Source: Myxococcaceae bacterium
GTDB taxonomy: Bacteria; Myxococcota; Myxococcia; Myxococcales; Myxococcaceae
Assembly (NCBI GenBank): GCA_017881265.1
Contig: JADGRA010000048.1
Location: 1-64,000, forward strand
Reading direction: 5' to 3'
DNA length: 64,000 bases
A program made the translations under genes and the position numbers. Numbering within the stretch: position 1 is the stretch's first letter; every line of letters starts with the position of its first letter. The notes under the pieces were generated by a model. It was given only the letters and a program-made list of their open reading frames with translations, made no database searches and had not been told where the DNA came from. Shown here one piece after another: positions 10,416 to 47,465 of the stretch.

Positions 10416-13142
10416 CTACGGCTCGCGCGGGTAGGCGAGGTGGATGGAGTACAGGCTGGTGATGTTGTGCACCGTGTCCACGGCGAATGCGGAACCGCTA
10501 GCGTGGCAGACCGTGCAGGTCTCGATGGGCGGACCGCTCGCAGGCGTGTAGGTGTTGATGGCGGCGTGGGCTGCATCGTCCGCCGAGTCATGACACGTCA
10601 TGCATGCCCGGGTGGTTGGGCTTTGCCAGGCAACATTGACGCAGCTACCGGACGCGCTGCACGTCTGCCCATAGGCGCAAGGCGTCGACGCCGAGCAGGC
10701 GACCTTGGAGTCCTGGTGGCAGTTGGTGCAGGAGCGCACGTCCACCGGCGACAGCACCTCCTGAAAGCTGCTCAGGCCATTGTTGAAGCCCAGGTAGTTG
10801 AGGGTCGCGGGTGCAATGGGTGGCGTCCCCCACGGCTCGCCCAGGTTGTTGCGTTCCGCGTACCCGGCGCGCAGCCGCGCGAAGTGGATGTTGTGCACCA
10901 TCTTCTGGTAGTCGATTTCCACCCCTGGCGTGGGGTCCGCAGTGGTCGTGCAGTTGGTGCCCCCGTCCGTCAGCGACGGGTTCGGCAAGCACGCCTCCCA
11001 GCTTGCGGACGGGTTTGCCGCGTTGTATCCGCCACACTGCGTGTTGCTGGTGCAGGTCGGTCCAATCGAACCGGCTCCCAGATCCTGCGCGTACTGGCTG
11101 TGGCAGGTGTTGCACGTCTCGCCATTCTTTCGCTGGTCTCCATGGAGCGCCAGGTGCGGGAAGCCGTCGGCGGCCTGTCCATGGCACGCCGCGCACGCTG
11201 CCTGCGTCACCACCTGCCGAGCCTGCACGGGGTTAGTTGTCTGGAAGTTCACCACTTTCTGGGCGTCCACGGCGTCCCGGACGCCATTCGTCGTCCTGGC
11301 CCAGTAGAACCACACCGTGTAGCTGCCGGGCGGCGCCGGCTGTGGCGTGAGACCGCTGAGGATGGGTGCCAGTGCATTGGCCGGCCAGGGCGTCGACGGA
11401 GTGTAGGTGTACGTGGAAGTTCCGTCGAAGGTGAGCGTCCCCGTGGACGCCGTCTTCATCGACAGTCCGCCCGTGGCGCTTCCGTAGACGCGCTGCGGGT
11501 TGGAAGTGGGGCCGGCGACGATGAACGTCCCTGCCCAGGCGGAGTTGGTCTTGAGGTCAATGACGCCCGCGTCTGACGCGTCCAAGAGCTGGAAGCTCAG
11601 GACGGGCGTGTCGCTGACGTTGAAGCTCCCGCCGGTGCCGCTGCCCCCGGTGACGCTGACGTTCTTGAAGGTGTACCCGTCCAGCGTGATGGGCGCAGTC
11701 CACTGGCTGATGCCGTGCACCTTATCCACCGGCGCGATGAGTCCGGGGGCTGTGGACGTCGAGGCAGCGTGGCACGTGGCGCATTCGGTGTCCGGGTTGG
11801 GGCTGGTCGGAATCGGGTGGAACCTGAGCACGCATTGCCCAAACGTGGGGGAAGTTGCGCTCACGTCGCAACTGGTGGCGGAGAGGTTCGGGTTGCCACC
11901 GACCGGGAACCCATTACAGGCCGAGTCGTTGGTGCACGGCCCGGTCGACGGCTGACCGAAAACCGTCTGCGGAACAATGTTCGGGGAGGTCGCGGGGGCA
12001 CCACCGTCCGGGGGCCCTGCGAAGAAGACGTTGTCGTGGCAGGAGCCGCAGGCCGCGCGCGAGATGTTGGTCGCCCACACGTTGTTGACGTGGCAGGCGG
12101 TGCAGTTCTTCTCCATCGCCACGTCCGCCGTCAGGGCCACCCCGGGCGTTCCGCCAATCGGCATGAGTGGGAAGCCCACGTTGAGGTAGGTCGGCAGCGA
12201 GGTGTCTGGCTGGACGTAGCCGTAGTCGGGATGCGGCACTCCCGGCGCAAGCTGGTGCTCACCACGGTGCGCTGCGTGCGCCTTGTGCATAATGGTGTAC
12301 GGGCTGTAGCCGTGGTTGTTGTGGCAGGACTTGCAGCTGCCGATGGGCAGCGAGTCCAGCGCGTAGTTGCCGACTGGCGAGAAGCCAGGGGCAATGTGAG
12401 CCATGTACGTTTTGCCACCGATAGCGTCATTCTTGTGGCAGGCGAAGCAAGTCGAGTTGTCAAGCGCCGCCGAAACCGTTCCGCCATCCGCCGGGCCACT
12501 CACGTAGGTCTCGACCGTGGCTGTGCCAATCTGGAAGTCGGCCAAGGCGAAGTTCTGGTCGAGGGTGTTCGGTCCGAGCGACCAGACGCCGGCCGAGTAC
12601 GTCCCGGGAATCTCGCCCGGGCCCTGGAAGCCGAAGCCGCCGTCGACAATGGTGATGGGGTTCAGCTTGTAGGTGATGGTGCCGTCGGCCTCCACGGTCA
12701 GGTTGGGCGGGCCTCCGTCCGGATAGCCCTTGAGGTTCGAGTAGGCGCCGAACGGGGCGTAGGGCACGTTCAACAGGTCAACGTTGGTGATTGTCAGGTT
12801 GGGCGAGCGCGGCCCATACACGTAAAGCTCTGCTTGCGTGAGCTGGGCGGGCGTGAGCTGCGTTCCGCAGTTGTTGGCGAACGCGATGGTGAGCACCGGC
12901 TGCTCTCCCGCCGCGAAAAAGGTCCCGTTCGCCGGCTTCGAAACGGTGACCGATGCCGTCAAGCCAGGAGTCTGGCCCACAGGCAGTCCCGGACAGGCGC
13001 CGGCGCCTGGAGTTCCCGCATCTCCCGCGGGGCCCGCTGGGCCGGTCGGGCCCTGCGGACCTTGCGGCCCCTCTGGACCCGAGGAGCCGCTACATGCGGC
13101 AGCGAGGGCGATGGCCAACACAACTAGAGATTTGCGCAGCAT
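10416..13142 (-). CDS. Decaheme c-type cytochrome lipoprotein (paralogue B)
   Basis: The 908-residue paralogue of the protein at 3130-5871 shares the same domain order and near-identical blocks (for example GPTSNPQRVYGSATGGLSMK and WFYWARTTNGVRDAVDAQ). The signal peptide ends in LAAAC (Cys17) and is followed by Gly-X-Y triplets at about residues 21-48. Ten CXXCH motifs run from about residue 231 (CFACH) to 875 (CTVCH). A ribosome site (GAGGAG) lies 8 bp before the ATG. It is followed by a hairpin and preceded by an inverted-repeat element and the NtrC-like regulator gene. Predicted role is outer-membrane extracellular electron transfer. A duplication with the 913-residue protein is evident. 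Confidence 0.9.
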   Translation of the reverse strand: MLRKSLVVLAIALAAACSGSSGPEGPQGPQGPTGPAGPAGDAGTPGAGACPGLPVGQTPGLTASVTVSKPANGTFFAAGEQPVLTIAFANNCGTQLTPAQLTQAELYVYGPRSPNLTITNVDLLNVPYAPFGAYSNLKGYPDGGPPNLTVEADGTITYKLNPITIVDGGFGFQGPGEIPGTYSAGVWSLGPNTLDQNFALADFQIGTATVETYVSGPADGGTVSAALDNSTCFACHKNDAIGGKTYMAHIAPGFSPVGNYALDSLPIGSCKSCHNNHGYSPYTIMHKAHAAHRGEHQLAPGVPHPDYGYVQPDTSLPTYLNVGFPLMPIGGTPGVALTADVAMEKNCTACHVNNVWATNISRAACGSCHDNVFFAGPPDGGAPATSPNIVPQTVFGQPSTGPCTNDSACNGFPVGGNPNLSATSCDVSATSPTFGQCVLRFHPIPTSPNPDTECATCHAASTSTAPGLIAPVDKVHGISQWTAPITLDGYTFKNVSVTGGSGTGGSFNVSDTPVLSFQLLDASDAGVIDLKTNSAWAGTFIVAGPTSNPQRVYGSATGGLSMKTASTGTLTFDGTSTYTYTPSTPWPANALAPILSGLTPQPAPPGSYTVWFYWARTTNGVRDAVDAQKVVNFQTTNPVQARQVVTQAACAACHGQAADGFPHLALHGDQRKNGETCNTCHSQYAQDLGAGSIGPTCTSNTQCGGYNAANPSASWEACLPNPSLTDGGTNCTTTADPTPGVEIDYQKMVHNIHFARLRAGYAERNNLGEPWGTPPIAPATLNYLGFNNGLSSFQEVLSPVDVRSCTNCHQDSKVACSASTPCAYGQTCSASGSCVNVAWQSPTTRACMTCHDSADDAAHAAINTYTPASGPPIETCTVCHASGSAFAVDTVHNITSLYSIHLAYPREP

Positions 13143-26457: not shown

Positions 26458-26916
26458 ATGGCAGCCCCTGTCGCTCAGAGCTTGAAGCCGGCACGGCGTA
26501 GCTTCCTGAATTGGTTCATCGGCGCCGGCCTCCTCGGCTGGGCCGGGAGCGTTCTCTACCCGGTGCTGCGCTACCTGCGCCCCCTGGGGGATGTGGGCGC
26601 GGGCGGCCCGTTGAAGCTCACGGCAGAAGAGCTTGCCATCCTGAACAAATCGCACTTCGTCATTGCCCGAGCGGGCACCCGGAAGGTGATTGTCTTCGAA
26701 TCGGCTGGGGAGCTGCGCGCCCTGGACGCAAAGTGCACCCACGAAGGCTGCACGGTGCAGTTCGTCCCGGGCGACTCGCTCATCTGGTGTGCCTGTCACA
26801 ACGGCAAGTTCGACCTGGATGGACGGGTGCTCTCCGGTCCGCCGCCTCGCCCATTGGGGAAGTGGGTCGCCACCCGAGAGGGTGACGAGGTGATGCTGAC
26901 GATGGAGACAGCATGA
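26458..26916 (+). CDS. Rieske iron-sulfur protein of a quinol oxidase complex
   Basis: The 152-residue protein has a twin-arginine-like N-terminus (RRSFLNWF) and one anchor helix at about residues 18-38. The Rieske domain has box 1 CTHEGC (Cys93, His95) and box 2 CACHNGKF (Cys111, His114); Cys98 and Cys113 should form the usual disulfide. It sits on the outer face of the inner membrane and takes electrons from quinol at the cytochrome b Qo site. The gene starts an operon with cytochrome b and a nonaheme cytochrome, overlapping the first by 4 bp. A GTG two codons upstream is an alternative start. Confidence 0.93.
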   Translation: MAAPVAQSLKPARRSFLNWFIGAGLLGWAGSVLYPVLRYLRPLGDVGAGGPLKLTAEELAILNKSHFVIARAGTRKVIVFESAGELRALDAKCTHEGCTVQFVPGDSLIWCACHNGKFDLDGRVLSGPPPRPLGKWVATREGDEVMLTMETA

Positions 26917-28325
26917 TCGAGGCACCGCACCCGGGTGTGCCCCCTTCCCCTGGTGAGCGCCTCTACCGCTGGCTGGACGCTCGGTTCGGGCTCGCGAAGG
27001 TGGTGGAGTTCGTCCAGCACAAAGAGGTGCCGGTCGGCGGCCACTCGATGGTCTGGTACTACCTGGGCGGCACCACGCTGTTCTTCTTCACCGTCCAGGT
27101 CGCCTCGGGCGTGCTGCTGCTCATGTACTACCAGCCCGGCGAGGTGACCTCGTACGAGTCCATCCGCTACATCACGACGCGCGTGCCTTTCGGCTGGCTC
27201 ATTCGCTCCATCCACTGCTGGAGCGCGCATCTGATGATTCTTTCGCTGGTGACGCACATGTTCAGCACGCTCATCCTGAAGGCGTACCGAAAGCCCCGGG
27301 AACTGACGTGGCTGAGCGGATTCGCGCTCTTCGGAATCGCCCTGGCCTTCGGATTCTCCGGCTATCTCCTCCCGTGGAATGAGCTGGCCTTCTTCGCGAC
27401 CGCCGTTGGCACCGACTCCGTCAAGGGCCTACCGGTCATCGGGCAGTGGTTGCTCGAGGTGATGCGTGGCGGGCCTGACGTCACCATCAATACGCTCTAT
27501 CGCTTCTTCGCGCTGCACGTCGTCATCCTGCCGCTGGTCATTGTGGCGGTGGTGTCTGTCCATCTTCTGTTCATCCAGGTGCAAGGCATGGCGCCAGGAA
27601 TGGCGCACCAGCGCGCCGACCGGCCCGGCCTCAAATTCTTCCCGGACTTTCTCCTCCGAGACCTCCTGCTGTGGCTGGTATGCCTGATTGTGCTGGCTGT
27701 TCTGGTGTACCTGCTCCCCTATGGCCCCGGCATCCCCGGGATTGAATGGGAGCTGGGAAAGAAGGCCAACCCGCTTGCACCCGCGTATCCCGGCATCAAG
27801 CCCGAGTGGTACTTCCTGTGGATTTACCAGCTGCTCAAGGAGTTTCCCGCTCACCTCTGGTTTCTCGAGGGACCGCAGGCGGCGCTGCTGGTGGTGACGG
27901 TGTTAATGGGAATCTGGGCGTTGGTGCCCTGGCTGGACCGGCGCGCCGGTCGGAACCAGCCCTCGCCGATGTTCACCGACCTCGCCATCGCAGCCATCAT
28001 CTTCATGGCCTACCTCATGCTGAAGGCATGGGACGTCGGCGGGCTGAAAGCGGGCTCCACGGGACTCCCAGATTCTCGGGCGACTGCCTGGACATGTTCG
28101 CTCATCATCCTGGGACTCGCATCGAGCGTCGCCCTGCTTCGGATGCTCGCGTACAAGCAGCGCTGGATGTTCTTCTCCGGCGCGGCGCTTCTGCAGGTGG
28201 TGCTGAACGGCGTGTTTGGGCTCGACTACATTGTCGCGGGAGGCATCGCTCTGCTCGTGGCCATCGCCGGCCTGGTGGTGACGCTGCGAAAGAGCAGTGG
28301 TGAGCCGCTGGAGGCGCCAAGATGA
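26913..28325 (+). CDS. Cytochrome b (b6-type with fused C-terminal half)
   Basis: The 470-residue membrane protein carries the four heme b ligands His101, His115, His202 and His217. The 14- and 15-residue spacings (H101-H115, H202-H217) are those of cytochrome b6 rather than mitochondrial cytochrome b. The Qo-site PEWY motif appears as KPEWYFLWIYQLLK, so the subunit IV-like half is fused on. About ten to twelve transmembrane helices are likely. With the Rieske protein and the following nonaheme cytochrome it should form a menaquinol-oxidising complex like the multiheme Cbc-type complexes of Geobacter. Confidence 0.92.
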   Translation: MIEAPHPGVPPSPGERLYRWLDARFGLAKVVEFVQHKEVPVGGHSMVWYYLGGTTLFFFTVQVASGVLLLMYYQPGEVTSYESIRYITTRVPFGWLIRSIHCWSAHLMILSLVTHMFSTLILKAYRKPRELTWLSGFALFGIALAFGFSGYLLPWNELAFFATAVGTDSVKGLPVIGQWLLEVMRGGPDVTINTLYRFFALHVVILPLVIVAVVSVHLLFIQVQGMAPGMAHQRADRPGLKFFPDFLLRDLLLWLVCLIVLAVLVYLLPYGPGIPGIEWELGKKANPLAPAYPGIKPEWYFLWIYQLLKEFPAHLWFLEGPQAALLVVTVLMGIWALVPWLDRRAGRNQPSPMFTDLAIAAIIFMAYLMLKAWDVGGLKAGSTGLPDSRATAWTCSLIILGLASSVALLRMLAYKQRWMFFSGAALLQVVLNGVFGLDYIVAGGIALLVAIAGLVVTLRKSSGEPLEAPR

Positions 28326-29902
28326 ATGCTCTTTGCGCGCTGCTGCTGTTGCTGGTCGCCACCAGTCCGGCGCCGGCGCCGGCACCGGACGACGGCAAGC
28401 TTCCCGCGTCGGTGGAGAAGCTATTCGAGGAGAAGGGACCGGACGGAAAACCTATTTTAGGAGATGCGGAGCGCGCGTACTTGAAGAAGCTCCCGCCGCA
28501 CACGCGCGATCTCATTGCAAAGGACGTCGATGCGCTCACCGTAGGGGGAGCGAAGCACCTCAAGGCCCTCCTCTCCCTGGATTTGTCCTCGCAGACTGCG
28601 GCCATCGTCTTCTCCGACAACTGCGTGCTCTGCCACAGCGACCCCGAGTCCCAGAAGCCCATCCACCTCTTCTCGCCCGACCCGAAGGCAACACACTCTG
28701 CGGAGCACCTGAATCTCAAGAGCCTTTTGAGCGACGTGCACTTCCGCCGGGGTTTGTCGTGCGCGGGCTGCCACGGGGGCTCGCCAGACAAGGACGTGAT
28801 GACCGCGGACATCGCGGCACGCTGGCCCAAGGCAGAGGTGCGCCACGTGGACCGCACCTGGATTCCGGAGTTCTGCGCCCGATGCCACGCAGACCCCAAC
28901 TTCATGCGCGGCTTCAACCCCTCCCTCCCCACCGACCAGCTCGCCAAGTACCGCGACAGCCAGCACGGCATCCTCCTATTGGGGGAGAAGGACTCCAAGG
29001 CGGCGCAATGCGTCAGCTGCCACGGCGTGCACGGCATTCGCGGTCCCAAGAGCCGTCAGTCCAAGGTGCACCCACAGGCCATTCCGGAGACGTGTGGCCA
29101 GTGCCATGCGGACCCGACGTACATGGCTGGGTACAAGAAAGCGGATGGAACGCCGCTCCCCACCAACCAGCTGGAGAGCTTCAAGAAGTCCGTGCATGGG
29201 AAGGCACTTCTCGAGAAGGGAGACCTCGGCGCTCCCGCCTGTAACAGTTGCCATGGCAACCACGCGGCGATGCCCCCGGCGGTGGGCTCAGTCTCGCAGG
29301 TGTGCCGGACGTGCCACGCCATGAACGGCACCCTCTTCGATGGAAGCAAGCACAAGCAGGCCTTCGAGCAGCACCACTGGCCGGAGTGCGAGAAGTGTCA
29401 CGGCAAGCATGAGATTCTGAAACCGAACGACTCGCTCATCTCCGATGCCCCAGACGGCCTCTGCGGCGCCTGTCATGCTGAGAACGCGAAGAACAACAGC
29501 GAGTGCAACGAGACGGCGCGCTATTTCCGCAGCAGCCTCTCCGACCTTGTCCTGCAACGGCAGCAATTCCGGCCGGAGGCGGAACACCTGGCGGAGCGCG
29601 GCCTCGACACCGAGCCCATCCTCGCTTCTATGGAGGAGTTGAACGAGGCCATCGTCCAGACGCGGACACGGGTCCACACCTTCGACAAGGGGGGCTTCGA
29701 CCAGGGAGCCAAGGCTGGACGCGAGGCTGTTGCCAAGACGGAGACGCTGCTGCAAGCGGCGCGGGGCGAGCAGCGCTTTCGCCGCAATGGACTCCTGGTC
29801 TCCATTGGATTCATGGCCTTCCTGGCAGCGGCGATGGCGGTCAAAATCCGTGAGCTGAGCAGACGGCGGGCAAAGACGAACGAGGGGCGGCGCCCGCCGT
29901 GA
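28322..29902 (+). CDS. Membrane-anchored nonaheme cytochrome c of the bc-type complex
   Basis: The 526-residue protein has an N-terminal signal peptide and nine CXXCH motifs (first CVLCH at about residue 102, last CGACH at about 381). A helical linker follows, then a C-terminal transmembrane helix at about 490-512. It thus faces the periplasm with a tail in the membrane. It overlaps the cytochrome b gene by 4 bp and replaces the mono- or diheme cytochrome c1 of ordinary bc1 complexes. It presumably takes electrons from the Rieske centre and hands them to soluble periplasmic cytochromes. Partial resemblance to cytochrome c3-type repeats is visible; no catalytic site such as that of nitrite reductase was seen. 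Confidence 0.88.
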   Translation: MNALCALLLLLVATSPAPAPAPDDGKLPASVEKLFEEKGPDGKPILGDAERAYLKKLPPHTRDLIAKDVDALTVGGAKHLKALLSLDLSSQTAAIVFSDNCVLCHSDPESQKPIHLFSPDPKATHSAEHLNLKSLLSDVHFRRGLSCAGCHGGSPDKDVMTADIAARWPKAEVRHVDRTWIPEFCARCHADPNFMRGFNPSLPTDQLAKYRDSQHGILLLGEKDSKAAQCVSCHGVHGIRGPKSRQSKVHPQAIPETCGQCHADPTYMAGYKKADGTPLPTNQLESFKKSVHGKALLEKGDLGAPACNSCHGNHAAMPPAVGSVSQVCRTCHAMNGTLFDGSKHKQAFEQHHWPECEKCHGKHEILKPNDSLISDAPDGLCGACHAENAKNNSECNETARYFRSSLSDLVLQRQQFRPEAEHLAERGLDTEPILASMEELNEAIVQTRTRVHTFDKGGFDQGAKAGREAVAKTETLLQAARGEQRFRRNGLLVSIGFMAFLAAAMAVKIRELSRRRAKTNEGRRPP

Positions 29903-31686: not shown

Positions 31687-33090
31687 GTGAAATTCATCCT
31701 GAAGATTCTCTCGACGGTTCGAGACTTCCTGTTCCTAGCCGCCCGGCACTGGGTGTCCGCAATCGGAGTCGCTCTCGCCAGCATCTCCGCTATCTCGTTC
31801 TTGTCGATCCTCGCACTCGAGCTCAGCGGCGAGGCCCGCGGCAACTACATGGGCATCATCAGCTATCTGATCTTGCCGACCCTCTTCGTGATCGGTCTTG
31901 CGCTGATCCCGATCGGGATCCGTCTGCTCCGCAAGCGAGAGAAGGCAGGCCAGCCAACGGGGTTCCCGGTTCTCAACTTCAACGACCCGCGGCTGCGCTC
32001 CATCGCCCTGCTCGTCATCGGGCTGACCGTCGTCAACTTGATGATTGTGTCGACCGCGACCTTCAAGGGCCTCGAGGTGATGCACAGCGACGCCTTCTGT
32101 GGCGGAACCTGCCACAACGTGATGCAGCCAGAGGCGGTCGCCCACCTGAACACGACCCATGAGAACGTGTACTGCGTCGATTGCCACATTGGCGAGGGCG
32201 CCAGCCACTTCGCCAAGGCCAAGCTGCGAGGTGCGACGCAGATGGTGCAGTTCCTCGTCGGCGACTACTCGCGTCCCGTGCCACAACCCACCGAGGTTCC
32301 GAACAGAATCTGCGTGCGGTGTCACGCCACGGAGCGCTTCAGCGAGAATCGACTACACATCCGGCGCATGTTTGGCGACCAGGAAAAGGCGGTCGAGAAA
32401 TACACCATCTATTGGATGTTGGTGGGCGGCGTTCGCGACGGGCAGTGGCACGGCGTACACAAGCACAACGGCCTGAAGGTCCGGTATTTGGCTGACCCGA
32501 AGCGCCGGACCATCACCGACATCGAAGTGACCCGCCCCGACGGCAGCACCGACAAATTCACTGCGAAGGACACGCAGGCTCCGGCCGGGGCGCAGTGGTT
32601 TGAGATGGGCTGCACCGACTGCCACAGCAGACCGGCGCACCGGTTCTCCAAGCCCGAGTCCGTCGTCAATGCAGCGCTCGCTACGGGCACCATCGACAAG
32701 GACCTCCCCTTCATCGGGCGCGAGGCCGTGGCAGTCCTCAAGACGACTTACCCCTCGCGCGAGGAGGCGCAGAAGGCGATTCCAGCCACGCTGCAGGCTT
32801 CCTACGCGAAGCTGACGCCCGAACTCGATGCCCAGGGCAAGGCGAAGGTCGCGGCGGCCGGGAAAGTGCTTGCCGAGGAATGGGCGCAGAACAACTTCCC
32901 CGACATGAAGGTCACCTGGGGTACCTACGTGGACTTCCTCCAGCACGACCCAGGGTGCTACCGCTGCCACGACAAGAAGCACGCCAACGCGAAGGGCGAG
33001 GTGGTGCAGCAGAAGTGCACTGGCGCCTGTCACGACACCATCGCCACCGAGGAAGAGAAGCCTGAGGCGCTGGACGTACTCTTCCCGTAA
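31687..33090 (+). CDS. NapC/NirT-like membrane hexaheme cytochrome c
   Basis: The 467-residue protein has three transmembrane segments (about 22-47, 56-82, 104-124), then a periplasmic domain with six heme motifs. The first is CGGTCH (Cys138, Cys142, His143), a CX3CH form; the last is CTGACH, also CX3CH. The others are CVDCH, CVRCH, CTDCH and CYRCH. The FCGGTCHNVMQPEAVAHLNTTHENVYCVDCH arrangement matches NapC/NirT/NrfH quinol dehydrogenases. It likely moves electrons from the quinol pool to periplasmic cytochromes, parallel to the Rieske complex. The start is GTG. The double membrane hairpin before the NapC helix is an extra. No catalytic partner such as NapA or NrfA is adjacent. Confidence 0.85.
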   Translation: MKFILKILSTVRDFLFLAARHWVSAIGVALASISAISFLSILALELSGEARGNYMGIISYLILPTLFVIGLALIPIGIRLLRKREKAGQPTGFPVLNFNDPRLRSIALLVIGLTVVNLMIVSTATFKGLEVMHSDAFCGGTCHNVMQPEAVAHLNTTHENVYCVDCHIGEGASHFAKAKLRGATQMVQFLVGDYSRPVPQPTEVPNRICVRCHATERFSENRLHIRRMFGDQEKAVEKYTIYWMLVGGVRDGQWHGVHKHNGLKVRYLADPKRRTITDIEVTRPDGSTDKFTAKDTQAPAGAQWFEMGCTDCHSRPAHRFSKPESVVNAALATGTIDKDLPFIGREAVAVLKTTYPSREEAQKAIPATLQASYAKLTPELDAQGKAKVAAAGKVLAEEWAQNNFPDMKVTWGTYVDFLQHDPGCYRCHDKKHANAKGEVVQQKCTGACHDTIATEEEKPEALDVLFP

Positions 33091-33452: not shown

Positions 33453-33800
33453 CTACTTCTTGAACGTGCGGATATACGCGATGAGGGCGTCGACCTGCTC
33501 GGGCGTGAGGTCCTTGAAGGCATCCATCTCCTGCTTCACGCCACCCGACTCCGTCTTGACACCATTGACAATGGCCTTCTTGAACTCGTCGCTCGCCTTC
33601 GCCTGAAACGCGGCGGTCGTCATGTCTTGCACCTTCATCTGCTGGCCCTTCTCAGTGTCTCCCTTGCCTGTAGCGCCATGGCAGGACGCGCACTGGGCCT
33701 TCCACAGGCGCTCAGTCTTCTTGTCGGTTTCTGCCAGTGCTGTGGTGCCGAGGAGAACTGCAGCGGCCGCAATCGATGCAATCAGATGAGCGTGTTTCAT
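33453..33800 (-). CDS. Small monoheme cytochrome c (tandem copy 1)
   Basis: The 115-residue protein has a cleavable signal peptide (cut near ALA-ETD, residues 22-24), giving a mature cytochrome of about 92 residues. It has one heme motif, CASCH, and a C-terminal helix with LIAYIRTFKK. A Met in KQEMDAF may be the axial ligand. It resembles cytochromes c5/c6 and is about 85-90 percent identical to the next copy. The ribosome site GGAGGG is 6 bp from the ATG. It is probably a diffusible periplasmic electron carrier between inner-membrane quinol oxidases and the outer-membrane conduit. Confidence 0.9.
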   Translation of the reverse strand: MKHAHLIASIAAAAVLLGTTALAETDKKTERLWKAQCASCHGATGKGDTEKGQQMKVQDMTTAAFQAKASDEFKKAIVNGVKTESGGVKQEMDAFKDLTPEQVDALIAYIRTFKK

Positions 33801-33899
33801 GCGTGACCCTCCGAGGTGACTGACGAGTAGCTCATCGACGGACGACTCGCAAGAATGTTCAAGAGGGTCCGTCGGCCGCCCGCTCTCTGCCCACTCCAG

Positions 33900-34247
33900 C
33901 TACTTCTTGAAGGAGCGGATCATCGCGATGAGGGAGTTGACTTGTTCGGCCGTGAGGTCCTTGTAGGCGTCCATCTCCTGCTTCACGCCACCCGACTCCG
34001 TCTTGACACCGTCCACGATGGCCTTCCTGAACTCGTCGTCCTTCTTCGCCTGGTAGCCGGCGGTCGTCATGTCCTGGACCTTCATCTGTTGGCCCTTCTC
34101 GGTGTCTCCCTTGCCTGTAGCGCCATGGCAGGACGCGCACTGAGCCTTCCACAAGCGCTCAGTCTTCTTGTCTGTTTCTGCAAGCGCAGTGGTTCCAAGG
34201 AGGACCGCAGCGGCCGAAATCGATGCAACCAAATGAGTGAGTTTCAT
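33900..34247 (-). CDS. Small monoheme cytochrome c (tandem copy 2)
   Basis: The 115-residue protein is very close to its neighbour at 33453, including signal peptide and CASCHGATGKGDTEKGQQMK heme segment. Differences cluster in the central helix (KKDDEFRKAIVDG) and C-terminal helix (LIAMIRSFKK), as in copy 3. It has its own ribosome site (AGGGG) before the ATG. Both copies look intact, so the duplication is maintained rather than decaying. Role as for copy 1. Confidence 0.9.
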   Translation of the reverse strand: MKLTHLVASISAAAVLLGTTALAETDKKTERLWKAQCASCHGATGKGDTEKGQQMKVQDMTTAGYQAKKDDEFRKAIVDGVKTESGGVKQEMDAYKDLTAEQVNSLIAMIRSFKK

Positions 34248-34339
34248 GAGTGACCCCTGAATGAAAGATGTGTCGCTTGTCGGGCGACTCGCACGGCTCC
34301 TTGCAAGGCGTCAGCCGCCCGCTCCCTGCTGAACTTCGG

Positions 34340-34690
34340 CTACTTCTTGAACGAGCGAATCATCGCGATGAGGGAATCGACCTGCTCGGGCGTGAGGTCT
34401 CCCTTGAAGGAGTCCATCTCTTTCTTCACGCCGCCCTTCTCGGTCTTGACCCCGTTCAAGATGGCGTTCTTGAGTTCGTCGTCTTTCTTCGCCTGGAACG
34501 CGGCAGTGGTCATGTCGACGATTTTCATCTGCTGACCCTTCTCGGTATCCCCGGCGCCCGCTGGACCGTGGCAAGACGAGCACTTGGCCTTCCACAGGCG
34601 CTCGGTCTTCTTGTCAGTTTCGGCCAGTGCCACGGCGCTGAGCAGGAGGGACGAGGCTGCAATCGTTGCCAACATGCGTGCGTGTTTCAT
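34340..34690 (-). CDS. Small monoheme cytochrome c (tandem copy 3)
   Basis: The 116-residue protein is the most divergent of the three: heme motif CSSCH, basic substitutions (NAILNGVKTEKGGVKKEMDSFKGDLT) and one extra residue before the final helix. The signal peptide is MKHARMLATIAASSLLLSAVALA. It comes first in transcription order, and its upstream region is shared with the divergent decaheme gene at 35126. The changed surface charge may tune partner choice, which is speculative. Confidence 0.9.
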   Translation of the reverse strand: MKHARMLATIAASSLLLSAVALAETDKKTERLWKAKCSSCHGPAGAGDTEKGQQMKIVDMTTAAFQAKKDDELKNAILNGVKTEKGGVKKEMDSFKGDLTPEQVDSLIAMIRSFKK

Positions 34691-35125: not shown

Positions 35126-38095
35126 ATGAAAGCCCGAATTCCGCTGGCAGTGCTAACCATCGCAGCGCTCGGTCTGAGCTGTGCAGGCCCCGTCGGTCCG
35201 ACCGGCCCGCAAGGCGACGCTGGACCTCAGGGCGTGGCGGGACCCCCGGGCGACGCCGGGACCGCGGGTCCGGTCAAAATCGCGAGCAACGCCGCTCCCC
35301 CCACTGACGCTGCATCCGCGGCGTGGGCAGCACTTGCGCCCCAGGTGACGGTCACGAGTGTCACCATCTCGAGTCCTCCCGTCGTGCATTTCACGGTGAC
35401 GGACGCCAACGGCCTCGCGGTCGTGGGTCTGGGCAACACTTCCAAGAGCAGCACCGCCACTGTCGCCGGTTTGAGCAACCTCTCCTTCGCCATCGCCAAG
35501 TTGGTGCCGGAAGCCACCGAAGCCACCAGCGACGGCGGCACCCGCGCAACGTCGCCCAGCAGGTGGATCAGCTACATCGTCACGACGGTGCCGACGACGA
35601 CGGCTGCAGCTGCCCCGACCCGTCCCAGCACCGACAACACAGGGACTCTGGTGGACAACGGAGATGGTACCTACGTGTACACGTTCTACCGGGACATCAC
35701 CAAAGTTGCGGCCTTCGTGGCAGATGCAGGGGTCTCGCCTCCGAACAACAAGGCCGACTTGGACGATCTGACCTACCAGCCGAGTTTGGTCCATCGGCTG
35801 ACCATCCAGCTCTCGGGCAGCGCTCCGGGCACCGGTACCAATACCCCCACTGGAGCTCAGGTGGTACCGGCTGTGTCGATGGTCAAGGCGGTGGACGCCA
35901 TTTACGACTTCACTCCCGCCACGGGTCAAATCGCGACGAATCCGGGCCGGGAAATCGTCTCCACCGCAAACTGCAACCAATGCCATCAGACGCTCGGTGG
36001 CATTCCCGGGGACAACCCCGAGAGTTCCGGTGCTGGATTTCACGGCGGTAACCGCAATGACACGCGCTATTGCGTGGTCTGTCACACCGGGCAGCGCGCA
36101 TACGGCAGGACGGAAGCGACCTTCACCCCCGCCACACTGACCACGCCTCCGGTCTTTACCGCTTCCAGCACCTACGTGGTGGATGGCCGGGCGCTCGGGA
36201 ACTTCCCGAACCACATCCACCACATTCACATGGGCGACAACCTCGTAAAGCAGAACTACAATTACAACTTTGCTTACAACTCCGTGCTCTATCCGCAGGA
36301 CCTCCGGAATTGCACCAAGTGCCACGACGGTTCGGCGACTGCCACCAACCCGACCGCGCAGGGGAACAACTGGCAGACCGTACCCAGTCGGTTGGCCTGC
36401 GGTGCATGCCACGATGGCATCAACTTCGCGGACGGAACCGGTGTGACCCTCTCCGACGCTTTCCAGGGGGTGTTCATCACCACCACCTTCGGGGGTCTTG
36501 CCCATGCCGGCGGCGCGCAGCCCGACGACACGCAGTGCACACAGTGCCACAACGCAAGCCGACCCGCGCTTGACCCCGCGGTGGTTCACATCCCGGTGAC
36601 TCCGCCGAATCCGCAGAACGCGCTCGCGGATGGCGGAACCAACGCCAACACCAACGCAGCGTGGATCGCTTCGAACCCGAGCCGGGCACCGGCCGGGGCA
36701 ATCACCGTCACCTATGACATCCAGAGCGTCTCGGTCAACGCGACCAGGCAGCCGGTGATGGTGTTCCGGATGCTGCAAAACGGAACGAGGACGGACCTCA
36801 ACAACTTCGCGACGGCATCGGTGAACCCCGCGACCGGAGCCAAGGAGCTTTGGGACAACTTCATGGGTGCGCCGAGCCTGTACTGGGTCTTCGCGGTACC
36901 CCAAGACGGAATTTCTGCGCCGGCCGATTTCAACGCGAGCGTCAGCGGCTATCTCAGGAGTCTCTGGAACGGGACTGCAACCAGTACCAAAAAGGGCACC
37001 CTCAGCGGCCCTGACAGCAATGGCTACTACACCGCGACACTCACCGGGGTCACCATTCCCACCAGCGCGGTCATGCTCACCGGCGGGATGGGTTACTCCT
37101 ACAACGTCACGAGCACGCTCCCGCTGACACAGACCAACCTCGCGGATTATCCCGTTACCCAGGGCCAGGCCAAGGGCCTACCGGGCACCTGCGTGACATC
37201 GGCCACCGCGGTGAGCCCTCCTTGCGTTGGCGGCTTGATTTTAATTGCGCCCAACGCGCAGGTGGTTGCCACCGGTTATACCGGCCGCCGACCCATCGTC
37301 GAGGACGCGCGCTGTGACAGTTGCCACCAGCAGCTCGGCGCGTTCACGCAGGACGCCTTCCATGCCGGACAGCGAAATGACGGGACAACCTGCGCCTGGT
37401 GTCATAACCCCAACCAGACCAGCAGCGGCTGGTCGGGAGATTCCACCAACTTCGTCCATGCGATTCATGCGGCTGCCAAGCGGACGGCACCGTTCACCTG
37501 GGATGCGACGAGCACGACGAACTCGTTCGCCGACGTGAAGTACCCAGGGGTCCTGGCGAACTGCGAGCAGTGCCACCTCCCCGGCACCTACGACTTCAGC
37601 GCCAGCGCCTCGGCTGCCGCCGTGCCGAATCGCCTGTACAGGACTGTCGGCACCGGCATCTACAATGCCGTCGCAGGGACGACGACCACCACCTACTCGT
37701 TCAGTGCTGGTGCTTGTGTCGCGGGCACGTCAGCCCCCCAGACGGCCCTCGGGGTGTTCGAGCTGTCGCCCTACATCACGCCGCTCGTGAATTACGGCTT
37801 CGGCTACACGTTCAACGCCGGGCTCACGACCAGCAATTCGTGCAAGCCAGACGGTACGCTGGTAACCATCCCGTCGGGTGGAATCGTCGACGCGGACCCC
37901 GTGACGCTCGTCAACTCGCCGGTCTCGACGGCGTGCTTCGCCTGCCACGACTCCCCGATCGAGCGGGCGCACATCGAGCTGAATGGCGGCTCCATCTACA
38001 CGCCCCGCAGCACGGCACTGGGAACGCTCGAGACGTGTTTGATTTGCCACGGCACAGGCCGGGTCGCGGACATCAAGGTAGTGCACGCGCAGTAG
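35126..38095 (+). CDS. OmcA/MtrC-type decaheme cytochrome lipoprotein of the conduit
   Basis: The 989-residue protein has a lipoprotein signal peptide (Cys19) and about nine Gly-X-Y triplets in residues 21-48. Beta-rich domains alternate with heme-binding stretches. Ten CXXCH motifs run from about residue 282 (CNQCH) to 970 (CLICH), five per half as in MtrC. It differs in sequence from paralogues A and B and is nearer in layout to the 793-residue protein. Genes for a beta-barrel and a 13-heme cytochrome follow on the same strand, so it should be the outer-face terminal reductase of that conduit. Specificity for iron, manganese, electrodes or other acceptors cannot be read from sequence. Confidence 0.9.
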   Translation: MKARIPLAVLTIAALGLSCAGPVGPTGPQGDAGPQGVAGPPGDAGTAGPVKIASNAAPPTDAASAAWAALAPQVTVTSVTISSPPVVHFTVTDANGLAVVGLGNTSKSSTATVAGLSNLSFAIAKLVPEATEATSDGGTRATSPSRWISYIVTTVPTTTAAAAPTRPSTDNTGTLVDNGDGTYVYTFYRDITKVAAFVADAGVSPPNNKADLDDLTYQPSLVHRLTIQLSGSAPGTGTNTPTGAQVVPAVSMVKAVDAIYDFTPATGQIATNPGREIVSTANCNQCHQTLGGIPGDNPESSGAGFHGGNRNDTRYCVVCHTGQRAYGRTEATFTPATLTTPPVFTASSTYVVDGRALGNFPNHIHHIHMGDNLVKQNYNYNFAYNSVLYPQDLRNCTKCHDGSATATNPTAQGNNWQTVPSRLACGACHDGINFADGTGVTLSDAFQGVFITTTFGGLAHAGGAQPDDTQCTQCHNASRPALDPAVVHIPVTPPNPQNALADGGTNANTNAAWIASNPSRAPAGAITVTYDIQSVSVNATRQPVMVFRMLQNGTRTDLNNFATASVNPATGAKELWDNFMGAPSLYWVFAVPQDGISAPADFNASVSGYLRSLWNGTATSTKKGTLSGPDSNGYYTATLTGVTIPTSAVMLTGGMGYSYNVTSTLPLTQTNLADYPVTQGQAKGLPGTCVTSATAVSPPCVGGLILIAPNAQVVATGYTGRRPIVEDARCDSCHQQLGAFTQDAFHAGQRNDGTTCAWCHNPNQTSSGWSGDSTNFVHAIHAAAKRTAPFTWDATSTTNSFADVKYPGVLANCEQCHLPGTYDFSASASAAAVPNRLYRTVGTGIYNAVAGTTTTTYSFSAGACVAGTSAPQTALGVFELSPYITPLVNYGFGYTFNAGLTTSNSCKPDGTLVTIPSGGIVDADPVTLVNSPVSTACFACHDSPIERAHIELNGGSIYTPRSTALGTLETCLICHGTGRVADIKVVHAQ

Positions 38096-38497
38096 GTGTC
38101 ATCGCAACATCGGCCAGTGAGCGGACTGAGCCATCCATCCTTGTGGTCGAGAGGTCCGACGGGCCCCGGCCACAAGGAAACGGCCCTGAGGCTCAGTCCG
38201 CCCATGCTGGGAGGCGTCGTCGGACGTCGGCGTCTCGGTTCGCTGGGCCCGGAGGAGGCGTCAACCCCCGACGGGCCCAGCGGGCTTCCGGTTTCCGCAG
38301 GCACTCTCGTGACAGCTGAGGTAACCTCGGACGTCGAGTGGTCGCGGTCCAATGGCCAGTTCTTCACCGTGGGGGAGGAGACGGTGGTGACGGTGAAGCA
38401 CACCGACAGCTGGGGGGTACGCTCCACGCTGGGCCCGGTCCAGGCTAACGTCGCCGGACCGCGGCGGAGGCTTTCTCCGCCAGAAGGAATCCGGTGA
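38096..38497 (+). pseudogene. Remnant of a decaheme cytochrome N-terminal region
   Basis: This 133-codon frame has no signal peptide or heme motif. It contains SNGQFFTVGEETVVTVKHTDSWG, which aligns with NGQFFVPGEQLVVTVGFVNYCG near the N-terminus of paralogue A (3130-5871), followed by ...NVAGPRR where A has IVYGPRD. Short Gly-Pro stretches before it echo the collagen-like segment. It thus looks like a decayed fragment, cut off before any heme site, between the decaheme gene and the barrel gene. Its stop overlaps the next start (GTGATG), so read-through coupling may be why the frame persists. Confidence 0.6.
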
Positions 38498-39927
38498 TGC
38501 GTCGCCCCGAGGGTTGCGGCCGGCAGCGAGCGCCACGGGGCCGGGACGCGACGGGTGCGCGGCTTCATCGCCCCGTCGGGCTCGCGCTTGGCGCTCGCAG
38601 GCGAGGTGCGGCCGCCCTGGCGCTCCTGCTGACCGTCTGGGCGCCGGTGGCGGTGGCCCAGGTGACGGAGGCCAGTTCGACGACGGTCTTGCGCCTGGAG
38701 CCAGACTGGCGAACGACAGACGGGCGGGTGGGCTTGTGGGGCACGGAATACATTGGGCTCTCGGTGAGGGGGCTGGACATTCCCGGCGCCATCGAAGACC
38801 TCCGCTTTCAGCTGTCCGCCTGGGGAACGGCTGCCACCATCACCGGGACCCCGGAACAGCTGCTGACCGGCGACTTTGACCTGCTCTACATGCAAGGGTC
38901 GCTCTTTCACCGTCACCTGACCGTCACCGTGGGGAGGCAGCTCATCTCAGGCGGGGCGGCGCGGGTCCTCCAGCTGGATGGACTGAACGCCAACGTTGCC
39001 ATCGGGAAATACTTTGGAATCAGCGGCTTCGTGGGCCAGCCCGTGCAGGCACCCACCGTCTCTGGAGTGGGAGTCAACGCCTACGTGGCCGCCCCCACCG
39101 TGTCTCGCGGCGTGGTGCCGCTCGGGGATTTCGCCTTCGGGGGAAGGGCCTACTGGAGGCCATCCTACGGCACCGAGGTGGGCGTTTCCTTCCTCGACAT
39201 TCAGAACGGCAGCCAAGTGGCCCGCCAGGACCTAGGTGTCGATGCCCATGTCCTGATTCTGCCCAACCTGTCGCTCACCGCCTCGAGCATCCTGAGCCTG
39301 GTGGAGTTGCGCGTGGCGGATGGCCAGCTCGGCCTCTCCTGGCACATTCTCCCCACGCTCGAGCTCTTCGTGAACGGGATGCGAACGGAGCCGGACCTTT
39401 TCCTCTCACGCACCTCCATCTTCTCCGTGTTCGCCTACACCCAGCGGACCGCCGCGGGAGGAGGAGTCTTCTGGCAGGCACTCCCGCGCCTCTCGTTCTA
39501 TGGCGAGTACAACCAGCTGTGGGTGGACGGCGGAAGCGGCAATGAAGCCCTCCTGGGCATCACCTACAAGCTCGACCGCAAGTCGAGCGTGGGCTTGAAT
39601 GGCCATCTCCTCTACGTCCCGGTGAACGGCTATACCGAGCTGCGCGCCTGGGTTCTCGAGTCGTTGACGGACCGGATAAGGCTAAGCGCCGACCTGCAGT
39701 GGCAGTTGCTTGAGAACCTGTTCACCTACGCCGGAACTTCCATTCCTTACAACGCAACGCGGGATTCCATCGTCGGGACGGCCAGCGTGAGCTGGCTGAT
39801 TGGTTGCGGGTGGAGTGGCATGCTGAGCGGGTCCATCGGGACGACGCCCCTGAACCTGACGCGCTACACCGTGACGGCACGGGTGGGCTACAACTTCACG
39901 ACGTTCGACGCGGGAACCCCTCGATGA
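38497..39927 (+). CDS. Outer-membrane beta-barrel protein, probable conduit porin
   Basis: The product of about 476 residues has a long N-terminus ending in a signal peptide (AALALLLTVWAPVAVA-Q, residues about 39-54). A mature part rich in alternating hydrophobic strands follows: Gly, Tyr, Leu, Val, aromatic girdles, and a final strand ending near YNFTTF. I count about 16-20 likely strands. No MtrB-type CXXC is present. It overlaps the 13-heme cytochrome gene by 4 bp and follows the decaheme gene, so it best fits the porin sheath of a porin-cytochrome complex. Resemblance to OmbB/MtrB is by size and context, not recognised sequence. The ATG at 38497 has an AAGGA site; GTG 38494 is an alternative. 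Confidence 0.7.
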   Translation: MRRPEGCGRQRAPRGRDATGARLHRPVGLALGARRRGAAALALLLTVWAPVAVAQVTEASSTTVLRLEPDWRTTDGRVGLWGTEYIGLSVRGLDIPGAIEDLRFQLSAWGTAATITGTPEQLLTGDFDLLYMQGSLFHRHLTVTVGRQLISGGAARVLQLDGLNANVAIGKYFGISGFVGQPVQAPTVSGVGVNAYVAAPTVSRGVVPLGDFAFGGRAYWRPSYGTEVGVSFLDIQNGSQVARQDLGVDAHVLILPNLSLTASSILSLVELRVADGQLGLSWHILPTLELFVNGMRTEPDLFLSRTSIFSVFAYTQRTAAGGGVFWQALPRLSFYGEYNQLWVDGGSGNEALLGITYKLDRKSSVGLNGHLLYVPVNGYTELRAWVLESLTDRIRLSADLQWQLLENLFTYAGTSIPYNATRDSIVGTASVSWLIGCGWSGMLSGSIGTTPLNLTRYTVTARVGYNFTTFDAGTPR

Positions 39928-40988
39928 AGTGGCGACTCTTCGGCCCCCGCAGTCTGCTCGCGGCTTCGCTTCTCCTCGGCGCCGGAGTGGTCGTCGCACT
40001 GGACTCTGCGGACCACATCAATCCGAACCATGCCGGCCACGCCAAGTCGGGCGTGGAATGTCTCGCGTGCCACGAGCCCATCTTCGACGAGACGACGCTG
40101 GGACAGGTCTCAGCTTTCCCCAAGGAGGCCAAGTGCCTCTCCTGCCACAAGAAGCAGAAGGAAGAGGGCAACTGCGGGTTTTGTCACTCACGCCCGGACA
40201 AGCCGAGCACCTACGTGCTGTCGCCGCCGCACCTCAAGTTCAACCACGCCAAACACCTCGAGAAGGATGAGAACTGCGGGGTGTGCCACCTGATGCTTCC
40301 GGCAAAGGGCCAGTTGGCCAAGCCGGTGCCACCGATGAAGACGTGTCTCGGTTGCCACAACCACCAACAGCAGTACGCCAACGGCCAGTGCGACGTGTGT
40401 CACCGGGACCTGCTCAGCATCCCGCTCAAGCCCACGAGCCCCCCGTTCAGTCACCAGGCAAACTTCACGCGCGCCCACCCACCCATTGCCCGGGCGTCCG
40501 CGGCGTCCTGCACCCTGTGCCACCAGCAACGCTTCTGTGCGGACTGCCACGCTGCGATGACCGCTCCGATGAGGATTGAGGCGGTCAAGCCGGATGCCGT
40601 GGACAAGAATTTCATCCACTGGGGCGACTACTTGACGCGACACTCGGTCGAGGCGCGCGGGAACGAGTCGCGCTGCCAGACGTGCCACGTGGTCACCTTC
40701 TGCGAGCAGTGCCACCGTGCGGCGCAACTGACGCCGAACTCGGCCAACCCGCAAAACCCACACCCCGCCGGCTGGAACATGCCTGGCAGCTCGAGCTTCC
40801 ACGGAACGGCCGCGCGGCAGGACATCGTGAGTTGCGCCACCTGCCATGAGCAGGGGGCACAATCCAACTGTGTGACCTGCCACCGCGTGGGCGGGTCCGG
40901 GGGCGATCCGCATCCATCCGGCTGGACCAATCGCCACCCAGCGTCGGAGATTCATCACAACCCCATGTGTCTGGCGTGCCATCCGTGA
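39924..40988 (+). CDS. Periplasmic 13-heme cytochrome c of the conduit (MtrA-like role)
   Basis: The 354-residue protein begins with a signal peptide or anchor (MKWRLFGPRSLLAASLLLGAG) and then packs thirteen CXXCH motifs, one per about 25 residues: CLACH, CLSCH, CGFCH, CGVCH, CLGCH, CDVCH, CTLCH, CADCH, CQTCH, CEQCH, CATCH, CVTCH, CLACH. Many other histidines can serve as distal ligands. The gene starts inside the barrel gene's stop (ATGA). By position it should be the heme wire inside or below the barrel, equal in role to MtrA/OmaB, although MtrA has ten hemes. The last motif ends at the C-terminus, so the chain could reach one end of the molecule. Confidence 0.85.
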   Translation: MKWRLFGPRSLLAASLLLGAGVVVALDSADHINPNHAGHAKSGVECLACHEPIFDETTLGQVSAFPKEAKCLSCHKKQKEEGNCGFCHSRPDKPSTYVLSPPHLKFNHAKHLEKDENCGVCHLMLPAKGQLAKPVPPMKTCLGCHNHQQQYANGQCDVCHRDLLSIPLKPTSPPFSHQANFTRAHPPIARASAASCTLCHQQRFCADCHAAMTAPMRIEAVKPDAVDKNFIHWGDYLTRHSVEARGNESRCQTCHVVTFCEQCHRAAQLTPNSANPQNPHPAGWNMPGSSSFHGTAARQDIVSCATCHEQGAQSNCVTCHRVGGSGGDPHPSGWTNRHPASEIHHNPMCLACHP

Positions 40989-41371
40989 GAACCCCTCCGG
41001 GGACGGAAGTCCTCTAACGGACATCACCGGGGGTGCGTGTTCTCGCCCAAAGGCTTAGGGGCGCGCTCGCTCCGGTGGAGGGCTTGTGCGGGGGATGCCG
41101 CGAAAAAAATTCGGACCGGGTGGCGTTCGAGCAAATTTCGCGCGAGCCGCCATGAGCGCCGTTCCGTGGGGAACGAGGCTCGGTTTCGTCGGCCGCACGT
41201 TGGCCTCACGGGCCGCCCGTGCAAGCGCCACTGCTTCCTGCGGCTTGAAGCGAAGCCGCTCCGCGCGTTCAACCCCGCGAGACTACACCCCTGCATGCTG
41301 AGACGTGCCGAAGAACGAAGGTCCAGCGCAGGATGCTCTGCCTTGGCCCCTCTCTTGCTGAAGCCTCCAGC
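40989..41371. other. Intergenic region before the hyp operon (383 bp)
   Basis: No gene is supported. Small frames here lack ribosome sites and sensible composition. The region ends with a sigma-54-like element at 41344-41359. Near the start, CCCCTCCGGGG just after the 13-heme stop may form a small hairpin. Confidence 0.45.
41344..41359 (+). promoter_or_regulatory. Sigma-54-like -24/-12 element before hypF
   Basis: TGGCCC-CTCTC-TTGCT matches the consensus TGGCAC-N5-TTGCW at all but one position with correct spacing. If real, transcription would start near 41370, only two bases before the preferred hypF ATG at 41372, so the mRNA would be nearly leaderless. That makes the call tentative. It gains weight from a similar element before the hydrogenase structural genes. 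Confidence 0.35.
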
Positions 41372-43666: not shown

Positions 43667-43670
43667 AGCG

Positions 43671-43982
43671 ATGTGTCTTGGCGTTCCGGGCAAGGTGTTG
43701 GAAGTGGATGGGCTGGTGGCCAGCGTCGACTTCTGGGGCGTGCGCAAGCAGGTCCGTCTCGACGTGGTGGACGCGCCGGTGGCGCCAGGGGACTACGTCC
43801 TCAACCACGTGGGCTTCGCCATCCGCCGCATTCCGGCCGAGGAAGGCCTGGCGACGCTCAAGCTCTACCATGACCTTTTGCGCAAGCAGGGGGAGGAGGA
43901 CGACCTGATGGCGGCCGACGTCCGCGCCGAAATCGAGGCGGCCGGACCCGGATGGTGGAGAGATTGTGACAAGCCCCTCTGA
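43671..43982 (+). CDS. hypC: HypC-type hydrogenase maturation chaperone
   Basis: The 103-residue protein begins MCLGVPGKV, the HypC signature; Cys2 becomes the N-terminal ligand that holds the Fe(CN)2CO unit. A small barrel core (VASVDFWGVRKQVRLDVVDAPVAPGDYVLNHVGFAIRRI) follows. It is longer than typical HypC (about 75-90 residues) because of an extra helical tail ending in WWRDCDKPL. A strong AGGAGG site precedes the ATG. Its 3' end overlaps hypD by 17 bp. With HypD it forms the scaffold for the iron centre. Confidence 0.95.
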   Translation: MCLGVPGKVLEVDGLVASVDFWGVRKQVRLDVVDAPVAPGDYVLNHVGFAIRRIPAEEGLATLKLYHDLLRKQGEEDDLMAADVRAEIEAAGPGWWRDCDKPL

Positions 43983-46151: not shown

Positions 46152-46162
46152 GGAGACGTCCC

Positions 46163-46996: not shown

Positions 46997-46999
46997 CCC

Positions 47000-47392: not shown

Positions 47393-47427
47393 CGCCAAGT
47401 GTCAAACGCGTCTCTAGGGCTACGCAG

Positions 47428-47443
47428 GGGCACCAGTCTTGCA
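47428..47443 (+). promoter_or_regulatory. Sigma-54 promoter of the hydrogenase structural operon
   Basis: GGGCAC-CAGTC-TTGCA matches the -24/-12 consensus TGGCAC-N5-TTGCW except for the first base, with correct spacing. The -12 GC is at 47441-47442, putting the start of transcription near 47453. That gives a leader of about 55 nt to the ATG at 47510, whose ribosome site is GGGGAG. Uptake hydrogenase genes in several proteobacteria are known to use sigma-54. Confidence 0.6.
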
Positions 47444-47447
47444 CTTC

Positions 47448-47465
47448 GCCAGGTAACACCCTGGC
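47448..47465 (+). promoter_or_regulatory. Inverted repeat at the predicted hydrogenase transcription start
   Basis: GCCAGG-TAACAC-CCTGGC is a perfect 6-bp inverted repeat overlapping the start site predicted from the adjacent sigma-54 element. It could be an operator or form a small 5' hairpin in the transcript. No regulator family is suggested by the sequence. Confidence 0.35.

What the first reader, a model, noticed from the sequence alone, without database searches (positions are those of the whole stretch)
35126..40988. Probable porin-cytochrome conduit with a 13-heme periplasmic partner
A decaheme surface lipoprotein, a beta-barrel and a highly heme-packed cytochrome occur in one direction, the last two overlapping by 4 bp. 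This matches the logic of MtrCAB and OmbB-OmaB-OmcB, but the periplasmic partner has 13 CXXCH motifs in 354 residues rather than about 8-10, and the barrel shows no sequence I can tie to MtrB. It may be a separate conduit type.
Basis: partly seen in the sequence, partly recalled or inferred. Interest (0 to 1): 0.72.

Follow-up and report, generated by a model that had tools for sequence, protein, structure and literature searches.

The report
Myxobacterial outer-membrane electron conduit
These genes very probably encode a protein wire that carries electrons out through the outer membrane of a myxobacterium; it belongs to an already described barrel-plus-cytochrome type (known from Anaeromyxobacter), and its 13 hemes are normal for that type, but it sits beside an MtrC-like surface cytochrome that the described Anaeromyxobacter clusters lack.

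Summary
In detail: a 10-heme OmcA/MtrC-family lipoprotein (35126-38095), a signal-bearing beta-barrel (38494-39927) and a 13-CXXCH cytochrome (39924-40988) lie on one strand, the last two sharing ATGA. The conduit reading is well supported; the "separate conduit type" reading is not. A same-strand barrel lies directly upstream of the homologous 12-14-heme gene in 76 of 80 named loci, mostly Myxococcota, also Ignavibacteria, Bacteroidota and Nitrospirae; three of the other four are contig ends. Named Anaeromyxobacter strains carry the 12-heme form and share a supported clade with the window protein. This matches the two-gene Pcc clusters that Shi et al. 2014 (PMC4245776) described in Anaeromyxobacter (12 or 14 hemes, 338-344 aa; Pcc barrels 18-22 strands). 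AlphaFold2 gives a confident 22-strand barrel (pLDDT 90); it matches neither MtrB/PioB (PF11854) nor any porin family. What differs is the cap: an MtrC-family decaheme gene precedes the pair, and a degraded fragment of a second decaheme gene lies between them, where the closest relative has an intact one. With quinol-side and periplasmic cytochromes upstream, this is a putative complete extracellular electron transfer island. New variant of a known kind; insertion and function are inferred.

The parts
35126..38095 (+). OmcA/MtrC-family decaheme outer-surface lipoprotein (proposed cap)
   Evidence: TIGR03507 435 bits (cut-off 209), PF22113 2.8e-50, 10 CXXCH, lipobox, collagen-like linker; PDB sequence match MtrF 3pmq 5.7e-21
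38180..38464 (+). Degraded N-terminal fragment of a second OmcA/MtrC-type decaheme gene, where the closest relative has an intact decaheme gene
   Evidence: tblastn of L025 decaheme residues 5-89 (E 1.5e-4) and of window protein 10419-13142 residues 2-112 (E 8e-4), same frame and order; intact gene in L025
38494..39927 (+). 22-strand outer-membrane beta-barrel (Pcc-type porin-like sheath)
   Evidence: AlphaFold2 pLDDT 90.2, pTM 0.83, 22 strands; homologues beside the cytochrome gene in 76 of 80 named loci; no Pfam, NCBIfam or PDB sequence match
39924..40988 (+). 13-heme c-type cytochrome (proposed heme wire through the barrel); start overlaps the barrel stop by 4 bp
   Evidence: 13 CXXCH and 12 conserved non-motif His; weak profile match to MtrA chain 6r2q_A, 2e-6
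31687..33090 (+). NapC/NrfH-like inner-membrane cytochrome (4 CXXCH + 2 CX3CH), proposed quinol-side entry
   Evidence: PF03264 3.2e-6, NrfH model 1.5e-10 but far below its cut-off; homologues beside the pair in L045, L046, L048, L053, L060 and Ignavibacteria loci
26913..28325 (+). Cytochrome b (b/b6 type), proposed quinol oxidase subunit
   Evidence: PF00033 1.1e-47, PF00032; homologues near the pair in several loci
28322..29902 (+). 9-heme cytochrome overlapping the cytochrome b gene by 4 bp
   Evidence: 9 CXXCH; cytochrome b plus 9/11-heme pair recurs near the conduit in L029, L055, L115, L118, L120
33453..33800 (-). Small monoheme periplasmic cytochrome c, copy 1
   Evidence: PF00034 1.7e-12; homologues near the pair in several relatives
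33900..34247 (-). Small monoheme periplasmic cytochrome c, copy 2
   Evidence: PF00034 3.4e-8
34340..34690 (-). Small monoheme periplasmic cytochrome c, copy 3
   Evidence: PF13442 2.6e-9
185..2566 (-). Second OmcA/MtrC-family decaheme lipoprotein (possible alternative cap)
   Evidence: TIGR03507 403 bits, over cut-off
3130..5871 (-). OmcA/MtrC-like decaheme protein (possible alternative cap)
   Evidence: PF22113 1.1e-25; TIGR03507 below cut-off
10416..13142 (-). OmcA/MtrC-like decaheme protein, paralogue of 3130-5871 and of the decaheme gene next to the barrel in the closest relative
   Evidence: 69% identical to 3130-5871; L025 decaheme 57% identical

Best explanation
38494-40988 encodes the trans-outer-membrane core of a porin-cytochrome (Pcc) conduit of the Anaeromyxobacter type. 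The 22-strand barrel is an insulating sheath and the 13-heme protein is the heme wire inserted in it from the periplasmic side. The MtrC-family decaheme lipoprotein 35126-38095 (and possibly the three others in the window) is the outward-facing cap that hands electrons to Fe(III), Mn(IV), humics or another extracellular acceptor. Electrons would enter from quinol through the cytochrome b/9-heme complex and the NapC-like cytochrome and cross the periplasm on the small monoheme cytochromes. Shown: gene order, heme motifs, barrel fold prediction, conserved pairing, family relationship. Inferred: insertion of the cytochrome in the barrel, docking of the MtrC-type cap, direction of flow, acceptor.
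For: Barrel gene directly upstream of the 12-14-heme gene, same strand, in 76 of 80 named loci; three of the other four are contig ends. A start codon placed for a 4-bp overlap in 60 of those 76. Barrel and cytochrome distance matrices correlate at r = 0.91 over 57 loci against a permutation maximum of 0.11 (shared descent alone can give this). AlphaFold2 22-strand barrel, pLDDT 90, within the 18-22 strands published for Pcc barrels. Window cytochrome in one supported clade (96/94) with Anaeromyxobacter 12-heme proteins; Anaeromyxobacter two-gene clusters are published Pcc clusters, and the cytochrome Adeh_3392 rises under Mn(IV) reduction (PMC4245776). Cap meets TIGR03507 at 435 bits. Quinol-side cytochromes recur beside the pair as far away as Ignavibacteria. 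The only barrel of this family and all four OmcA/MtrC-type proteins found in the genome lie in this window.
Against: No complex could be modelled; the 13-heme model alone is poor (pTM 0.46) and has no significant structural match, MtrA included. The barrel's Foldseek matches are diffuse (ushers, OprD, AlgE, MOMP; TM about 0.5 or less) and MtrB is not in the top 50. 398 bp separate the cap gene from the barrel. The motif at 84-88 has no invariant distal histidine of its own. Anaeromyxobacter clusters of this family lack a cap gene, so the cap partnership is not a family rule. Homology to Geobacter OmbB/OmaB was not tested here.
Confidence: 0.84

Rival explanations
1. The same conduit runs inward: the complex takes up electrons (for example from Fe(II) or partner cells) like PioAB/MtoAB instead of exporting them.
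For: Two-component barrel-cytochrome conduits without a dedicated cap are described in Fe(II) oxidisers (PMC4245776); a complex-I type gene cluster and a cytochrome b complex are present in the window.
Against: MtrC-type caps and Anaeromyxobacter relatives are tied to extracellular reduction (PMC4245776); a reduced-donor side (hydrogenase, quinol cytochromes) is in the same window.
Confidence: 0.1
2. The 13-heme protein is a periplasmic electron store or shuttle that does not enter the barrel, and the barrel only anchors it or exports something else.
For: In many relatives the cytochrome is a lipoprotein (48 of 80 by a strict lipobox pattern, more by eye), so it could simply be tethered; there is no complex model.
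Against: Near-universal one-to-one pairing with the barrel, usually with overlapping genes.
Confidence: 0.06
3. A substrate-specific porin lies by chance between two cytochrome genes.
For: Foldseek's best barrel matches include solute porins at low TM-score.
Against: No porin family in Pfam or NCBIfam matches any of 67 homologues; the pair is conserved across phyla.
Confidence: 0.02

Closest known systems
Two-gene Pcc clusters of Anaeromyxobacter (Group IV of Shi et al. 2014, PMC4245776; Adeh_3392 cytochrome)
   Same: Barrel and dense multiheme cytochrome adjacent; 12-heme homologues of about 344 aa here (L035, and named L065, L066, L069); barrel within the 18-22 strand range; sequence homologues of both genes.
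   Different: 13 instead of 12 hemes (extra motif at residues 84-88); an OmcA/MtrC-type cap gene upstream, which the Anaeromyxobacter clusters lack; cytochrome not a lipoprotein here.
Ignavibacterium-type Pcc clusters (IALB_1838/1839)
   Same: Ignavibacteria loci L112-L124 hold a homologous barrel and 14-heme cytochrome with NapC-like and cytochrome b plus multiheme genes beside them.
   Different: 14 hemes, about 400 aa, different surface cytochromes, about 30% identity. The I. album proteins themselves were not compared.
Shewanella MtrCAB
   Same: Cap belongs to the OmcA/MtrC family; same three-part logic.
   Different: Barrel is not PF11854 and has 22 predicted strands against 26 for MtrB; cytochrome has 13 hemes and does not meet the DmsE-type model.
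Geobacter OmbB-OmaB-OmcB and Ext conduits
   Same: Barrel, multiheme periplasmic cytochrome and surface lipoprotein cytochrome; ExtA has 12 hemes (PMC6148476); Geobacter extEFG also sits with a hydrogenase operon.
   Different: Cap is of the OmcA/MtrC family; sequence homology to OmbB/OmaB/Ext proteins was not tested here.

Membership tests
Pcc conduit, Anaeromyxobacter type (Shi et al. 2014 Group IV) | Barrel gene adjacent to a periplasmic multiheme cytochrome gene | tested here: met
   Window 38494-40988; same arrangement in 76 of 80 named loci
Pcc conduit, Anaeromyxobacter type (Shi et al. 2014 Group IV) | 5-14 hemes in the periplasmic cytochrome (12 or 14 in two-gene clusters) | tested here: met
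   13 hemes, 354 aa; homologues 12-14
Pcc conduit, Anaeromyxobacter type (Shi et al. 2014 Group IV) | Barrel with 18-22 strands | tested here: met
   22 strands in the AlphaFold2 model, pLDDT 90
Pcc conduit, Anaeromyxobacter type (Shi et al. 2014 Group IV) | Sequence homology of both proteins to the Anaeromyxobacter pair | tested here: met
   Named Anaeromyxobacter loci L065, L066, L069; tree clade 96/94 with the window protein. Identity with the locus tag Adeh_3392 itself was not verified
Pcc conduit, Anaeromyxobacter type (Shi et al. [quoted passage not shown]
   Needs a complex model and wet-lab tests
Pcc conduit, Geobacter type (OmbB-OmaB-OmcB, Ext) | Homology to Geobacter OmbB/OmaB or Ext barrels and cytochromes | not tested
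   No Geobacter genome could be reached through the tools
MtrCAB | MtrB/PioB-family barrel (PF11854) | tested here: not met
   No match in the genome or in 67 homologues
MtrCAB | MtrA/DmsE-type decaheme cytochrome (TIGR03508) | tested here: not met
   16 bits against a cut-off of 192; only a weak profile match to the MtrA chain 6r2q_A
MtrCAB | OmcA/MtrC-family surface decaheme (TIGR03507) | tested here: met
   435 bits, cut-off 209
Substrate-specific porins | Match to a porin family | tested here: not met
   None in Pfam, NCBIfam or PDB sequence; Foldseek matches diffuse, TM about 0.5 or less

The most novel reading that the evidence does not exclude
A hybrid conduit in which an MtrC-family cap works on an unrelated Pcc-type 22-strand barrel and 12-14-heme wire, with the cap exchanged during evolution: the nearest relative has a different decaheme subfamily directly before the barrel, and the window keeps a degraded fragment of one there. 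The core would then be a standard socket for interchangeable surface cytochromes across Myxococcota, Ignavibacteria and beyond.
Probability: 0.4. Interest if true: 0.5.

Novelty: new variant of a known kind. Interest (0 to 1): 0.33.

Why it matters
It moves the finding from a possible new conduit type to a documented family and shows by comparison how broad that family is (Myxococcota, Ignavibacteria, Bacteroidota, Nitrospirae), with the core pair constant and the surface cytochromes variable. No Pfam or NCBIfam model covers the barrel, so such conduits are easily missed by annotation. If the MtrC-type cap really docks on this barrel, cap choice and membrane crossing are separable modules, which can be tested in Anaeromyxobacter.

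Tried and rejected
MtrB/PioB membership: rejected. PDB sequence and fold searches for the barrel: no specific relative. Fold search with the 13-heme model: no significant match, probably because the heme-free model is poor. Reaching a Geobacter genome to compare OmbB/OmaB: not possible through the handles available. A conserved link between the conduit and the hydrogenase genes downstream: not found in any of the 80 named loci. A third cytochrome next to the pair in many relatives (11-12 hemes, as in L025): a single-sequence search found none in this genome (no positive control). A distal ligand specific to the motif at 84-88: none found. A later GTG start for the barrel at 38575: the codon is GTC, so the start is GTG 38494 or ATG 38497. 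Literature: the locus tag Adeh_3392 appears in one held paper only; no dedicated study of these myxobacterial clusters was found.
Full report
Observation. 35126-38095 encodes a 989-aa lipoprotein with 10 CXXCH and a collagen-like linker; 38494-39927 a 477-aa protein with a signal peptide and no heme motif; 39924-40988 a 354-aa protein with 13 CXXCH, against 0.17 expected in shuffles. The last two genes share ATGA. Between the first and second lie 398 bp.

What each part is. The decaheme protein is an OmcA/MtrC-family member (TIGR03507 435 bits; PF22113 2.8e-50; PDB match to MtrF). The barrel matches nothing in Pfam, NCBIfam or PDB sequences, alone or as a profile, and MtrB/PioB PF11854 is absent from the whole genome. 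AlphaFold2 with 67 homologues gives a 22-strand barrel at pLDDT 90.2; Foldseek finds only diffuse barrel similarity. The 13-heme protein contains c7-like multiheme segments; as a profile it weakly matches MtrA in 6r2q (2e-6).

Comparison. The pair was sought in relatives, in 195 genomes of the phylum (barrel profile in 81) and in named GTDB genomes (164 relatives of the cytochrome confirmed, best 80 kept). In 76 of the 80 named loci a barrel gene is found directly upstream on the same strand. In three of the remaining four (L058, L096, L123) the cytochrome gene lies at a contig end; in L117 no barrel was recognised. A start codon that would overlap the barrel stop by 4 bp exists in 60 of the 76. 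Heme counts are 12, 13 or 14. In a 70-row alignment 11 of the window's motifs are present in every row, and 12 further histidines are conserved. The third motif (84-88) is missing in the Anaeromyxobacter-type and in one large Myxococcota group of 12-heme forms but present in Ignavibacteria and Nitrospirae, so 13 may be the older state; it has no conserved distal histidine of its own. In the tree the window protein pairs with a Myxococcaceae MAG (L045, 64%) and lies in a supported clade (96/94) with Anaeromyxobacter proteins. Barrel and cytochrome distances correlate at 0.91, as expected for genes inherited together.

Known or new. Shi et al. 2014 (PMC4245776) described two-gene Pcc clusters in three Anaeromyxobacter genomes and Kuenenia, with cytochromes of 12 or 14 hemes in 338-344 aa and no outer-membrane cytochrome, and a 14-heme, 400-aa form in Ignavibacterium. 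They report 18-22 strands for Pcc barrels and 5-14 hemes. The named Anaeromyxobacter loci here (PSR-1, A. soli, A. oryzae) carry such a pair without a decaheme cap gene nearby. The window is therefore a member of that family, and 13 hemes does not set it apart.

What is distinctive. An MtrC-family cap precedes the Pcc-type core. Decaheme genes also precede the barrel on the same strand in L029, L030, L045, L049 and L055 among others. In the closest relative the preceding gene belongs to another decaheme subfamily (57% identical to the window's 10416-13142 protein), and the window keeps a degraded N-terminal fragment of such a gene at 38180-38464 (same frame and order; E 1.5e-4 in the whole window). 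This suggests that the cap was exchanged. All four OmcA/MtrC-type proteins that the genome search finds lie in this window, with the genome's only barrel of this family.

Mechanism. Proposed chain: quinol, cytochrome b/9-heme pair (26913-29902) and NapC-like cytochrome (31687-33090), three monoheme cytochromes (33453-34690), 13-heme wire in the barrel, MtrC-type cap, extracellular acceptor. Similar quinol-side genes accompany the pair in Ignavibacteria. Shown: genes, motifs, predicted fold of the barrel, pairing, family. Inferred: insertion, docking, direction, acceptor.

Limits. No complex could be modelled. Homology to Geobacter barrels was not tested. Genomes reached by the genome search are unnamed.

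Noticed in passing
window 185-13142 (-): Three further OmcA/MtrC-type decaheme lipoproteins; 3130-5871 and 10416-13142 are 69% identical paralogues.
   Followed up: partly
window 38180-38464 (+): Apparent relic of an OmcA/MtrC-type N-terminal domain between the cap gene and the barrel.
   Followed up: yes
L160, L161, L162, L163, L165: Large-genome members of the same family (single contigs of 9.5 and 12.3 Mb among them) carry a diverged 13-heme cytochrome; in L160 and L165 a barrel ORF lies directly beside it, with no other multiheme gene in 20 kb. If these are aerobic fruiting myxobacteria, the role of such a pair is unclear.
   Followed up: partly
window 41333-51128 (+): hyp maturation genes and a [NiFe] hydrogenase with a cytochrome b directly downstream of the conduit; not conserved next to the pair in relatives, though Geobacter extEFG also sits with a hydrogenase operon (PMC6148476).
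   Followed up: partly
L062, L064, L067; L075, L078, L098, L100; L080-L104: Very heme-rich cytochromes (28, 33-34 and 22-23 CXXCH) beside the barrel pair in other Myxococcota.
   Followed up: no
window 33453-34690 (-): Three tandem copies of a small monoheme cytochrome c.
   Followed up: no
window 39924-40988 and relatives: The cytochrome carries a lipobox in many relatives (including L035, an Anaeromyxobacter-like genome) but not in the window, its nearest relative or the Ignavibacteria.
   Followed up: partly
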